A stretch of DNA of 64,000 bases from positions 1 to 64,000 of the forward strand of contig BBBF01000003.1 of NCBI GenBank assembly GCA_001315925.1. Direction: 5' to 3'. Source of the stretch: Thermocladium modestius JCM 10088 (GTDB lineage Archaea; Thermoproteota; Thermoprotei; Thermoproteales; Thermocladiaceae). This document shows positions 1 to 62,527 of the stretch, one piece after another; positions within the stretch are counted from its first letter, which is position 1, and each line of letters starts with the position of its first letter. The position numbers and the translations under genes are program-made. A model generated the notes under the pieces. The model was not told the DNA's origin and did not search any database. It worked only from the letters and a program-made list of their open reading frames with translations.

Positions 1-24
1 TAAAGGGCGGGGAGGAGGTCAGTA
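1..24 (+). mobile_element. IS605-type right-end remnant at window edge
   Basis: These 24 bases match exactly the last 24 bases of the tnpB element that ends at 4924 (starting TAAAGGGCGG and ending GGTCAGTA). The flanking bases differ: ACTAAC here, CGTTGG there. This is therefore the right end of another copy whose body lies left of the window. In IS605 elements the bases just beyond this end would be the guide of the element's omega RNA. That role is inferred; only the shared terminus is seen. Confidence 0.75.
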
Positions 25-3145: not shown

Positions 3146-3253
3146 GGAGTTAGCTGCCCATTTCCTGCCTATCACAGGGCCCAAGCCGTGCGTTTGTCAG
3201 GCCATCCCGGAAAGGGATTGAACCCCCCCCTGACCAAGCTAGACTACGGCCCC
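3146..3253 (-). tRNA. split tRNA-Pro(UGG), 5' half
   Basis: Read on the minus strand from 3253: acceptor strand GGGGCCG, TA, a D region starting GTCTAGCTTGGTCAG, then anticodon stem CACGG and loop CTTGGG, giving anticodon TGG. No 3' tRNA sequence follows. The transcript instead runs into TGGGCAGCTAACTCC (3160-3146), the exact reverse complement of the leader of the 3' half at 50499-50586. The two stems CACGG and CCGTG pair perfectly, and TTGGG can pair with CCCGA of the partner to build a bulge-helix-bulge for splicing at 37/38. The D region is about 36 nt too long, so one or two extra introns lie there. C runs at 3223-3230 and 3250-3256 look inflated. This is trans-splicing architecture; function is inferred. 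Confidence 0.85.
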
Positions 3254-3274
3254 CCCTCAGACATCGACTTAGGT

Positions 3275-3287
3275 GCATTTTTAAAGA
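3275..3287 (-). promoter_or_regulatory. TATA box of the split tRNA 5' half
   Basis: Minus-strand CTTTAAAAATG is centred about 28 nt upstream of the tRNA 5' end at 3253, the standard archaeal TATA spacing. It indicates independent transcription of this half. Confidence 0.6.
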
Positions 3288-3467
3288 TTTGCTCGAGCGG
3301 GCACTAGCAATTCTCCTTTCCTTATTGGGGCCAAATCCCATGTCTAACGCCGAGGAATTAGGCTATGCTGGCTCTTGGAGGACAATGGCTGATAAAAAAG
3401 AGGACAAACCTCGCCTCTTTGAGGCGGGAAGAAAGTTTTTTTAAGTTCCTTCAACACATCTTTCTTC

Positions 3468-4903
3468 ATGACGCCCTCCCCTGGTCAATTCCCTGAGGAT
3501 GAGGAGCGGGGGGGCCGATCACCCCAGCAATACCGGGGGGGAAGGGCGTCCACGAAGTCAAATATTCAAATAAGAGAACAAATATTGTACGTCTCCTACC
3601 AAACGGATTCCAAGAAAGGAAGCTAAAGAGGTTAGCCAACGAGTGTGCCAAGCTCTTCAACGAGTTAAACTACGAGAGGAGGCAACAATTCTTCCACGGG
3701 GGGGAAAAAGTAGACCTAAAAGGCACGTGGGGGGGCAAGTACTATGAGAAGTACAAGGGTGTACTTGGAGTTAACGCTCAAGCTGTCATGCAGAAGAACA
3801 ACGAGGCGTGGAGTTCGTTCTTCTCCCTACTGAGGCTGAAGAAACAAGGAAAACTACCTCACATGGTTAAAGTTTCGCCACCGCGTTATTGGAAGGAAAA
3901 AGAAACTAAGAGGAGGAAGCTAATCCTAGTTGTTAGGCAAGATCGCTATGAAGTCGATGAGAACAAGCACGTTATCATCCTCAAGGACTTCCACTTGGAG
4001 GTTGAGTTTGTAGGTGGGTTGAGGCGGCGTGGGAAACAAGGAAGGTTAGAAATCATCCATGATGAGACTACCAACAAGTGGTACGCCCACGTGCCAGTTG
4101 ATGTGGGGGGTTGAGGAGACGAAGACTGGGAAGAAGAGTGAATACGTTGTTCGCGGTGAGAGGAAGTCAATCCAGGCCGAAGCACCGAAGGGAAACAAGA
4201 TAGCCTCCATAGACTTAGGTATTAACGTCTTGGCCAGCGTAGTAGTCGACGACGGGACTTGGTTGTTATATAGGGGTGTTAGGGCTAAGGAGGATTATTT
4301 CTACTTCCAAAGGAGGATCGCCGGGGGGGTGCAGTCGATGGCTGGCAGAGCGAAGAACGTGGGTGAATATGAAGCGTATGAAGAGTTAGCAAGAGAGAAA
4401 AGGGGGGGAGCGTTCAAGAAACTGTATAGCAGACTGTTACACTTATACAGAAACTTAGCATCCCACATGGTAAGGAAATTATATGAACTAGGTGTATCCA
4501 TCGTTTATCTAGGCTATCCCTTCAACATTGCGCAGGGGGGGAAGGGTAATAAGTTCACTGTGAACTTGTGGTCTTACCGTGAACTAATGGAAGCGATTGA
4601 GTTGAAGGCTCAAGAGTATGGCATGAAGGTGTTTGAGGTTGTTGAGTATAACACCTCTAGGCTGTGTGCATATCATGACGTTGAGGTAAGGAGACATCCT
4701 AGAGGGGGGGTAGTAAGTTGTCCTAGGGGGGGCATAAGTTGCACAGCGACTTAAACGGTGCATTGAACATAATGAGAAAGGCTGTGGGCATCGTTGTGTC
4801 GACGGTTAAGAAACCGCTTTCATTCCTAGTACTTCATGGCGGAGTAGCGCCCGTTAAAGGGGGGCGTAACCCTCCAGACCTCGGGGAACCCCCCCCACCC
4901 TAA
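3468..4903 (+). CDS. tnpB: TnpB, RNA-guided nuclease family
   Basis: About 475 residues, close to the family norm once frame changes are bridged. TnpB proteins are RuvC-like nucleases guided by an omega RNA from the element's right end. Seen: RuvC I SIDLGINVLAS (Asp present), a helical insert, YLGYP where RuvC II normally places its Glu, then a zinc-finger-like region (C/H pairs at LCAYH and CPRGH) and RuvC III HSDLNGALNI (Asp present). The ATG at 3468 is chosen because a frame reading MTPSPGQFPEDEE connects through shortened G tracts into the conserved body. Frame changes occur at G tracts near 3511, 3535, 4105, 4705 and 4727. The C-terminus runs into the right end, as in other IS605 tnpB genes. 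Copies of its tail occur at 54549-54790. Confidence 0.85.
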
Positions 4904-4924
4904 AGGGCGGGGAGGAGGTCAGTA
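4840..4924 (+). ncRNA. putative omega RNA scaffold / right end
   Basis: The last part of tnpB plus the right end holds GGAGTAGCGCCCGTTAA followed by a GGGG/CCCC hairpin and the shared terminus. A close relative stands alone at 26155-26263. In IS605 elements this region is the scaffold of the guide RNA, with the guide taken from sequence beyond 4924. The RNA itself is inferred from position and conservation. Confidence 0.45.
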
Positions 4925-5014
4925 CGTTGGTTTAAATATCTCAATCGCTTGGAGTCCCATAATGCCTAGAGTAGGAGACTCAGCCTTTAAAGAGCGGTAT
5001 GCCGAGATAGCGGT

Positions 5015-48253: not shown

Positions 48254-48387
48254 GCATTGCTTTTAAGCATGTAAGTCTAATAAATGTTGCGTGATGAAGG
48301 ATCAACAAACCGATTGATGAGGATACTCACATGGACTGAGATGTATGATGGATCGGCTTCGAACTCCACTTTAACGCGGGGGGCGGC

Positions 48388-50498: not shown

Positions 50499-50586
50499 TG
50501 GTGGGGCCGCCGGGATTTGAACCTTCCCCCCCGGGCAACTCGGCCCGACCGGGACCTCACGGGATCGGGTGGGCAGCTAACTCCGA
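50499..50586 (-). tRNA. split tRNA-Pro(UGG), 3' half
   Basis: Minus strand: leader GGAGTTAGCTGCCCA (50584-50570), exactly complementary to the 3' flank of the 5' half, then CCCGAT, position 38 C, anticodon stem CCGTG, variable AGGTC, T stem CCGG, a probable intron of about 26 nt (TCGGGCCGAG to the G7 run and AAG), then GTTCAAAT CCCGG and acceptor CGGCCCC with A73. CCA is encoded in DNA (50501-50499). No D arm or acceptor 5' strand precedes it. Joined to the 5' half it makes a full cloverleaf with anticodon TGG. The intron boundaries in the T arm are inferred. Confidence 0.85.
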
Positions 50587-50607
50587 GTACTCCCTTTTTC
50601 CTAAGGC

Positions 50608-50620
50608 CTATTAAACTTTT
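50608..50620 (-). promoter_or_regulatory. TATA box of the split tRNA 3' half
   Basis: Minus-strand AAAAGTTTAATAG is centred about 27 nt upstream of the complementary leader, so transcription would start at or just before GGAG at 50584. This supports a separate transcript that begins with the pairing segment. Confidence 0.6.
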
Positions 50621-54790: not shown

Positions 54791-54853
54791 CGAGACCTTA
54801 GTATATAGAAAATGAAGTAGGCCTTGAGCGATCAGGAAAGAATCAATTAATAG

Positions 54854-54972
54854 TGGGGCCGCCGGGATTTGAACCCGGGATCACCGACGCTCTGGATCGC
54901 TTGGAGCCAACGCTCCACGGGGCTTGTGCCCCCCCAGGCCGGTATCCTTTTTCCAAGCTAGACTACGGCCCC
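54854..54972 (-). tRNA. tRNA-Pro(GGG) with intron
   Basis: Minus strand: acceptor GGGGCCG (54972-54966), D arm GTCTAGCTTGG...GGAT, anticodon stem CCGGC, loop CTGGG, an intron from about position 37 (GGGGCACAAGCCCC to CCAGAG), then stem GTCGG, variable TGATC, T arm CCGGG-TTCAAAT-CCCGG, acceptor CGGCCCC and A73. Anticodon GGG. Stems pair fully apart from one G-U. CCA is not encoded. The C7 at 54969-54975 shows three extra Cs at the 5' end, and the C7 at 54929-54935 lies at the loop/intron border, so the intron size is uncertain. TATA-like ATTAAAAATT (about 55003) sits 31 nt upstream. Confidence 0.9.
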
Positions 54973-55072
54973 CCCTCAGCGAAGCGGCATCCTTGGCAAT
55001 TTTTAATCTTTACGTTAATGAAAAAGTGAAATTACGCATAATTCTACGGTTAAATGGATGGAATATGCGGGA

Positions 55073-62118: not shown

Positions 62119-62350
62119 CCTCCATGAGTAGATAATCATAACCCCCCCCTTCTGTGGCATTGGTCTAAGGTCCTACCCGGGCCTCGTCGCATGGTTCCTC
62201 ACAGGCCCCTATTTGGACCAACGTCCCCCCCTTCCGGCTTTACCCGTCGGGTCGCCCCGAGGGACCCATGCGAGTAGGGGGGGGAGTTTCCTGAGGCCGC
62301 CCGTCGCCGTGACGGCCCCCCCGCGCATTGCGATTATCTACCCATGGAGG
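62119..62350 (-). ncRNA. rnpB: RNase P RNA, minimal (type T-like)
   Basis: Minus strand. Its ends form a 19-bp P1 helix: CCTCCATGGGTAGATAATC (from 62350) pairs with GATTATCTACTCATGGAGG (to 62119) with one mismatch. Between lie the conserved CR-I-like CAGGAAACTCC, a P-stem GGGTCCC...GACCCGACGGGTAAAGCC, the GTGAGGAACCATGCGACGAG part, and the CR-V-like AATGCCACAGAAGG. Only about 232 nt, lacking the usual specificity domain, as in Pyrobaculum/Caldivirga type T RNase P. G/C tracts at 62142, 62225, 62277 and 62315 are probably inflated. TATA box CTTATAAAC (62374-62382) is about 27 nt upstream. Confidence 0.85.
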
Positions 62351-62382: not shown

Positions 62383-62410
62383 CTTCCCGCAAGATATTGT
62401 AAGGCGAATA

Positions 62411-62461
62411 TTCAGCTTGGTATCACTCTTCACGATCTCCGAAATACCAGCTTTCATCACA
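62411..62461 (-). ncRNA. C/D-box guide sRNA
   Basis: Minus strand: C box GTGATGA (62460-62454), spacer AAGCTGGTATTT, D' box CGGA (62441-62438), C' box GTGAAGA (62433-62427), spacer GTGATACCAAG, D box CTGA (62415-62412). Spacing and total of about 50 nt are those of archaeal C/D sRNAs directing 2'-O-methylation. The D' box is one base off consensus. Targets, five bases upstream of D and D', would be in rRNA or tRNA and are not determined here. It lies just upstream of rnpB on the same strand. Confidence 0.6.
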
Positions 62462-62527
62462 AATCACCTGGATAATTCATTGACTTATAAGCGTTTAACC
62501 CGCGGCATAATGGGTAATCTACGACAT

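What the first reader, a model, noticed from the sequence alone, without database searches (positions are those of the whole stretch)
3146..3253. tRNA-Pro(UGG) is split into two genes 47 kb apart
The minus-strand segment ends after the anticodon TGG with no 3' half, and its trailer TGGGCAGCTAACTCC is the perfect reverse complement of the leader of a solitary tRNA 3' half at 50499-50586. Anticodon-stem strands CACGG and CCGTG also pair perfectly, acceptor strands GGGGCCG and CGGCCCC match, and both halves have TATA boxes at the right distance. This is the architecture of trans-spliced tRNAs known in Nanoarchaeum and Caldivirga. I do not recall a split proline tRNA among the published examples, so the identity may be new.
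Basis: partly seen in the sequence, partly recalled or inferred. Interest (0 to 1): 0.92.

Follow-up and report, generated by a model that had tools for sequence, protein, structure and literature searches.

The report
Split proline tRNAs sharing one half
In a heat-loving archaeon (Thermocladium) two proline tRNAs are not encoded as whole genes: two different front halves, one per anticodon, apparently join a single shared back half after transcription, which adds proline to the short list of trans-spliced tRNAs and shows an unusual layout in which the joining site doubles as the splice site of an ordinary intron.

Summary
The segment at 3146-3253 (minus) is the 5' part of tRNA-Pro(UGG); 50499-50584 (minus) is a solitary 3' part. 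The 15-nt trailer and leader are perfectly complementary, each part has its own TATA box, and no intact tRNA-Pro(UGG) was found in the 1.92-Mb genome or in two congeners. (1) A second 5' half, anticodon CGG, lies on another contig (C22) with a trailer fitting the same 3' half, so one 3' half serves two tRNAs; all three Thermocladium genomes show this. (2) The halves carry cis introns: D arm, T arm (identical to the one in intact tRNA-Val(GAC)), and 15-20 nt after G37. (3) The best trans bulge-helix-bulge does not join exon to exon; it joins that residual intron's end to C38, so trans-ligation appears to create the intron's 3' splice site (ordered trans-then-cis splicing; inferred). (4) 4-5-base G/C runs in this assembly are often inflated by three. 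Removing the introns in silico gives perfect tRNA-Pro(UGG) and (CGG). Split tRNAs, including shared 3' halves, are known; proline and the stacked trans/cis junction were not found in the reviews I could read. No RNA data were available.

The parts
3276..3290 (-). TATA-box region of the 5'-half gene (AAATCTTTAAAAATG)
   Evidence: Sequence; TAAATCTTTAAAAA-type block conserved in G001 and G002; coordinates
3229..3253 (-). 5' half of tRNA-Pro(UGG), first exon (acceptor 5' strand, D stem and loop to G23)
   Evidence: Identical start to the intact tRNA-Pro(GGG) of the same window; coordinates
3194..3228 (-). cis intron in the D arm (H GTCA/TGAC, bulges GG^G and AA^A; 32 nt in G002, 35 here through the inflated G run)
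   Evidence: Orthologous introns in G001 and G002; removal restores the D stem GTCT/GGAC
3180..3193 (-). 5' half, second exon: positions 24-37, anticodon stem strand CACGG and anticodon UGG
3162..3179 (-). residual 18-nt cis intron at 37/38 (CCCTGTGATAGGCAGGAA); its end AA^ is the 5' side of the trans junction
   Evidence: Best trans and best cis BHB both point to this boundary
3146..3161 (-). 3' trailer of the 5' half (A + TGGGCAGCTAACTCC), pairs with the leader of the 3' half
   Evidence: 15-bp perfect complement, -29.4 kcal/mol, 0 of 5000 shuffles
50607..50620 (-). TATA-box region of the 3'-half gene (AAAAGTTTAATAGG), about 22-24 nt before the leader
   Evidence: Conserved in G001 and G002
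50564..50584 (-). 5' leader of the 3' half: pairing strand GGAGTTAGCTGCCCA (50570-50584), H strand CCCG and AT of the 3-nt bulge
   Evidence: Identical in three genomes
50549..50563 (-). 3' half, first exon: C38, CCGTG, variable loop, T-stem 5' strand
50523..50548 (-). cis intron in the T arm (H TCCC/GGGA, bulges GG^T and AG^G; 23 nt without the inflated G run)
   Evidence: Same intron sequence in intact tRNA-Val(GAC), L168 and L007
50499..50522 (-). 3' half, second exon: T loop, acceptor 3' strand CGGCCCC, encoded ACCA
54851..54972 (-). intact tRNA-Pro(GGG) with a 37/38 intron; not part of the split gene but the only intact proline tRNA found in the genome

Best explanation
The two loci are the separately transcribed halves of tRNA-Pro(UGG). 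The 5' half runs from its own TATA box through position 37, a short insert and a trailer; the 3' half starts at about the first base of the complementary leader. The halves anneal over 15 bp, the archaeal tRNA-splicing endonuclease cuts a bulge-helix-bulge at the junction, and RtcB ligase joins the exons. The same 3' half also serves a second 5' half (contig C22) with anticodon CGG, so one 3' gene completes both tRNAs. Three further cis introns (D arm, T arm, 37/38) must be removed. Inferred order: trans-splicing first joins the residual 37/38 insert (...AA) to C38. That ligation creates the 3-nt bulge AA^C and brings in the CCGTG strand, completing the canonical BHB (H = C32-G35 with CAGG or CGGG), from which the insert is then removed. 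Shown: sequences, pairing, conservation, absence of intact genes, perfect in-silico products. Inferred: transcription, cleavage, ligation and their order (the two-step order about 0.65-0.7 on its own).
For: Perfect 15-bp complement, unique in the genome. Same architecture in three Thermocladium genomes, including a second 5' half (CGG), one shared 3' half and conserved TATA boxes; conservation ends at the trailer end and starts at the leader start. Pairing-region changes in G001 keep pairing through G-U or one bulge. No intact Pro(UGG) or (CGG) found. An unbiased BHB search gives AA^A / AT^C (AA^C / AT^C for CGG) as the best trans junction in all six Thermocladium pairs. After joining, an intron whose 3' splice site is exactly the trans junction ranks first (UGG) or ties for first (CGG), and after all introns are removed ARAGORN calls perfect tRNA-Pro(tgg) and (cgg). 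The same script recovers a classic exon-exon junction in a Caldivirga-type split tRNA-Gly used as positive control, whereas a direct 37^/^38 cut in Thermocladium gives 2 of 4 H pairs and no h'. The T-arm intron recurs in intact tRNA-Val(GAC). EndA-like genes (one strong, one weak match) are present here and in G001; RtcB is intact in G001 and G002 and present but broken by indels in this assembly.
Against: No transcript data: expression, cutting and ligation are not shown. The UGG trans H helix has one A-C mismatch here and in G002 (CAGG/CCCG; full 4 bp in G001 and in every CGG gene). ViennaRNA at 37 C prefers for this UGG pair a three-way junction with exon UUGGG paired to CCCGA. The H pairing of the residual intron has about a 4-5% chance of arising in shuffled inserts. 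The assembly is fragmented, with indel errors and low estimated completeness (47.6%), so absence of an intact gene rests partly on the two relatives, one of which is 97% complete and the other 76%.
Confidence: 0.92

Rival explanations
1. Split and trans-spliced as above, but in one step: the 5' cut falls directly after G37 within a three-way junction (exon UUGGG or UCGGG paired with CCCGA of the 3' half, the insert folded as a side hairpin), so the insert leaves as part of the trailer and is not a separate intron.
For: ViennaRNA at 37 C gives this fold for both UGG and CGG pairs of this genome; the mature product is the same.
Against: It does not have the 3-4-3 BHB geometry: a forced 37^/^38 cut has 2 of 4 H pairs and no h'. 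The side hairpin is broken in both G001 orthologues, while the BHB elements of the two-step model are kept. The same stacked layout occurs independently in a Caldivirga-type split Pro(GGG).
Confidence: 0.25
2. The halves are dead remnants of a broken tRNA gene, and an intact tRNA-Pro(UGG) was missed.
For: The assembly is fragmented and has indels; no expression data.
Against: Both halves, promoters and complementary arms are conserved in three genomes; the sequence outside the arms has diverged. No intact gene in any of them by 5'-end and 3'-end searches with up to 2-3 mismatches.
Confidence: 0.03
3. Misassembly of an intact intron-rich gene.
For: This assembly has systematic G/C-run errors.
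Against: Separate assemblies of two other genomes give the same broken ends, each with its own upstream promoter; on contig C16 of G002 the halves again lie about 46 kb apart.
Confidence: 0.02
4. A single tRNA gene with a 47-kb intron or cis read-through.
For: Both halves are on the same strand of one contig.
Against: On the minus strand the 3' half lies upstream of the 5' half, dozens of ORFs lie between them, each half has its own TATA box, and the CGG 5' half is on another contig.
Confidence: 0.005

Closest known systems
Nanoarchaeum equitans split tRNA-Glu(CUC)/(UUC)
   Same: Two 5' halves with different anticodons share one 3' half, ligation site 37/38, complementary trailer and leader, separate promoters (PMC3218864 Table 1; PMC4390854; PMC4090602)
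   Different: Other amino acid and phylum; the reviews describe no residual 37/38 intron at the trans junction
Caldivirga maquilingensis split and tri-split tRNA-Gly
   Same: Same family-level group, shared 3' half, 37/38 junction (PMC4090602, PMC4390854); the likely Gly(GCC) middle piece and shared 3' half were found in G003 and their junction recovered
   Different: There the trans BHB uses exon positions 32-35 as H (exon-exon joining); here H lies in a residual intron. The isotypes reported as split in Caldivirga (Ala CGC/UGC, Glu UUC, Gly) are contiguous in this genome, and all three Pro tRNAs are contiguous in G003
Aeropyrum pernix / Thermosphaera aggregans split tRNA-Asp(GUC); Staphylothermus split tRNA-Lys(CUU)
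   Same: Sporadic, recent-looking splits with BHB and a 13-14-bp trans stem (PMC3218864)
   Different: Other isotypes, halves closer together, no shared half
Pyrobaculum islandicum tRNA-Pro(UGG) with three cis introns (25/26, 37/38, 56/57; PMC4090602)
   Same: Same isotype and the same three intron-bearing arms
   Different: Reported as one tRNA gene with three introns, not split

Membership tests
Trans-spliced split tRNA | 5' and 3' parts of one tRNA encoded at separate loci, no contiguous copy of that isoacceptor | tested here: met
Trans-spliced split tRNA | Complementary trailer and leader able to anneal the halves | tested here: met
   15 bp perfect; 0 of 5000 shuffles as stable; conserved in three genomes
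Trans-spliced split tRNA | BHB (hBHBh') motif at the junction | tested here: met
   Best motif AA^A / AT^C (CGG: AA^C / AT^C) in all six pairs; one A-C mismatch in H of the UGG pair of this genome and G002
Trans-spliced split tRNA | Trans BHB lies directly at the exon-exon junction (typical of the published 37/38 cases, not a requirement of the definition) | tested here: not met
   Direct 37^/^38 cut: H 2 of 4, h' 0; the motif is displaced by the 15-20-nt residual insert. This makes it a variant, not a non-member
Trans-spliced split tRNA | Separate promoters for each part | tested here: met
   Conserved TATA boxes upstream of both 5' halves and of the 3' half
Trans-spliced split tRNA | Joined product is a canonical tRNA with the right identity | tested here: met
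   ARAGORN: tRNA-Pro(tgg) and (cgg), full cloverleaf
Trans-spliced split tRNA | Expression of halves and of the mature joined tRNA | not testable with these tools
   No RNA data
Trans-spliced split tRNA | Splicing endonuclease and RtcB ligase in the genome | tested here: met
   PF01974: one strong and one weak match here and in G001; PF01139 intact in G001 and G002, fragmented here by indels
Permuted tRNA | 3' half encoded immediately upstream of the 5' half on one transcript | tested here: not met
   The order is 3' half then 5' half on the minus strand, but they are 47 kb apart with separate promoters

The most novel reading that the evidence does not exclude
Ordered trans-then-cis splicing: the trans-ligation of two separate transcripts builds the 3' splice site of a resident 37/38 intron (bulge AA^C, two bases from one RNA and one from the other), so the cis intron cannot be removed before the halves are joined. 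The same layout arose independently in a Caldivirga-type genome (split Pro(GGG), G012), suggesting that tRNA splits can begin as a second intron inserted at the 3' splice site of an existing intron and then broken by rearrangement.
Probability: 0.6. Interest if true: 0.75.

Novelty: new variant of a known kind. Interest (0 to 1): 0.63.

Why it matters
It adds proline, and two anticodons at once, to a short list of trans-spliced tRNA isotypes and a new genus to the few lineages known to have them. The set of split tRNAs differs between the related genera Thermocladium and Caldivirga, and within this family other genomes have independently split Pro(GGG) while close siblings keep the intron-bearing gene; this speaks for repeated recent splitting of intron-containing genes rather than relics of primordial half-tRNAs, and gives concrete before-and-after pairs to test that. 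The stacked trans/cis junction makes a specific, checkable prediction about splicing order.

Tried and rejected
Exon-to-exon trans junction directly at 37/38: rejected as a BHB (H 2 of 4, no h'). Acceptor and anticodon-stem complementarity as evidence: discounted, because the intact Pro(GGG) shares the acceptor stem. Pseudogene, misassembly and long-intron readings: rejected on three-genome conservation. Reading the long G runs as real features: rejected after comparison with G001, G002 and the UBA166 contig. ARAGORN and Rfam on the raw window do not see the halves. Literature searches for split tRNA with proline, Thermocladium, twintron or metagenome terms gave no published split Pro; the original Caldivirga paper (PMC2650326) is not held, so its isotype list was taken from reviews. 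Part of a planned control was incomplete: the first Gly piece fetched from G003 was the 5' quarter of the tri-split set, so the anticodon piece was found separately.

Full report
Observation. On the minus strand, 3253 to 3146 reads GGGGCCGTAGTCTAGCTTGG...CACGGCTTGGG...TGGGCAGCTAACTCC, and 50584 to 50499 reads GGAGTTAGCTGCCCA...CCGTGAGG...TTCAAATCCCGGCGGCCCCACCA. The trailer and leader are perfect 15-nt complements, each unique in the window, with one unrelated 2-mismatch match elsewhere in the genome. Their duplex is -29.4 kcal/mol; 0 of 5000 trailer shuffles are as stable. ARAGORN finds no tRNA in the window and the RF00005 search hits neither half.

Setting. The window is G000:C3:1-64000 of a 1.92-Mb, 118-contig assembly. 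It holds a truncated (type T) RNase P RNA. The organism is therefore a Thermocladium (Thermoproteales).

No intact gene. Searches with the Pro 3' end and Pro 5' end (up to 3 mismatches) found in this genome two exact 3' ends (the 3' half and the intact Pro(GGG) at 54851-54972) but three exact 5' ends: the UGG half, Pro(GGG), and a third at C22:23809-23828. The third is a 5' half with anticodon CGG whose trailer TGGGCAGCAACTCC pairs with the same leader with one bulged base. Among the RF00005 hits, Pro(GGG) is the only proline tRNA.

Relatives. G002 has the same three 5' ends and two 3' ends; G001 (97% complete) has both 5' halves and the 3' half. Alignment shows conserved TATA boxes, conserved arms, and loss of conservation exactly after the UGG trailer and exactly before the leader. 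G001 changes in the pairing region keep pairing: the UGG trailer TGGGCGGCTAACTCT through two G-U pairs, the CGG trailer TGGGCAGCTGCTCC through a G-U and a bulge. In G003 (2,077,567 bp, which I recall as the size of the C. maquilingensis genome) all three Pro genes are contiguous, as are nearly all Pro genes inspected in the other relatives.

Cis introns. The D arm carries an intron in both 5' halves. The 3' half carries a 23-nt T-arm intron (26 here because of an inflated G run) that is identical to the T-arm intron of the intact tRNA-Val(GAC) of this genome, and similar in G001 and G002. This fixes its borders and fits the intron copying among tRNA genes reported for Thermoproteales (cited in PMC4033280 and PMC4390854).

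The junction. An unbiased search for 3-nt bulges flanking a 4-bp helix, with a trans stem, gives AA^A / AT^C (AA^C / AT^C for CGG) as the best junction in all six Thermocladium 5'/3' pairs. This leaves 15-20 nt between G37 and C38. On the joined product the top-ranked (UGG) or joint-top (CGG) cis BHB removes exactly that insert: H = C32-G35 with CAGG or CGGG, bulges GG^C and AA^C, outer stem CACGG/CCGTG. The AA^C bulge exists only after trans-ligation. With all introns removed, ARAGORN calls perfect tRNA-Pro(UGG) and tRNA-Pro(CGG). As a positive control the same routine recovered the exon-exon junction of what appears to be the published Caldivirga split tRNA-Gly (H from exon 32-35), whereas a direct 37^/^38 junction fails in Thermocladium. 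The rival one-step three-way junction is the ViennaRNA minimum at 37 C for this genome, but its side hairpin is not kept in G001.

Independent parallels. Genome G012 (genus of G003) has a split tRNA-Pro(GGG) on two contigs (trailer GGTTGGGCGTCGGCC, leader GGCCGACGCCCAACC), again with the trans junction at the 3' splice site of a 37/38 intron that its congeners carry in a contiguous gene; its two other Pro genes are contiguous. G010 has Pro(GGG) interrupted in the D arm by about 1.25 kb with a glycosyltransferase-like ORF (by eye) between 18-nt inverted repeats.

Machinery. EndA-like genes (one strong, one weak match) occur in this genome and G001; RtcB is intact in G001 and G002 and fragmented here, consistent with the assembly's indel errors.

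Known or new. Reviews list split tRNAs for Lys, Gln, Glu, His, iMet, Asp, Ala and Gly, including shared 3' halves in N. equitans Glu and Caldivirga Gly (PMC3218864, PMC4390854, PMC4033280, PMC4090602). I found no split proline tRNA and no case described where trans-ligation builds a cis splice site. The original Caldivirga paper and tRNA databases could not be read, so novelty is probable, not proven.

Verdict. The finding is real and extends a known kind: split tRNA-Pro(UGG) and (CGG) with a shared 3' half (confidence 0.92 for splitting and trans-splicing as the explanation; about 0.65-0.7 for the trans-then-cis order).

Noticed in passing
whole window, e.g. 3247-3256, 3221-3228, 54966-54975; also contig C22: G/C runs of 7-8 are hugely over-represented (288 observed, about 6 expected) and runs of 4-5 depleted; against the UBA166 contig, 11 of 35 cleanly aligned 4-base runs are exactly 3 bases longer. 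Looks like a systematic assembly or consensus artefact; other small indels break genes such as RtcB and may explain the 47.6% completeness.
   Followed up: partly
L051 (G012:C15, about 6722 downwards) and L023 (G012:C1, about 13920): Split tRNA-Pro(GGG) in a genome of the Caldivirga genus: 15-bp complementary trailer and leader; congeners have a contiguous intron-bearing gene.
   Followed up: partly
L030 (G010:C53), 170-1521: tRNA-Pro(GGG) interrupted in the D arm by about 1.25 kb holding a glycosyltransferase-like ORF (228-1382) between 18-nt inverted repeats, with a TATA-like CTTATAA before the 3' part: split tRNA with adjacent halves, or a giant intron.
   Followed up: partly
L168 / L007 (tRNA-Val(GAC)) and window 50523-50548: The same T-arm intron sits in tRNA-Val(GAC) and in the Pro 3' half, a sign of recent intron copying between tRNA genes; tRNA-Ile(GAU) (L167) has a similar T-arm intron.
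   Followed up: partly
window 62130-62339: RNase P RNA of the truncated T type (83.5 bits).
   Followed up: no
window 1-24 and 4901-4924: Direct repeat TAAAGGGCGGGGAGGAGGTCAGTA, part of a weak HgcC-like match at 4857-4935.
   Followed up: no
window 48288-48341 and 62410-62464: Sub-threshold C/D-box sRNA-like matches (sR1, sR43, sR2).
   Followed up: no
own genome tRNA set: No clear tRNA-Cys or tRNA-Thr(UGU/CGU) among the RF00005 hits; they may be intron-rich, split or in assembly gaps.
   Followed up: no
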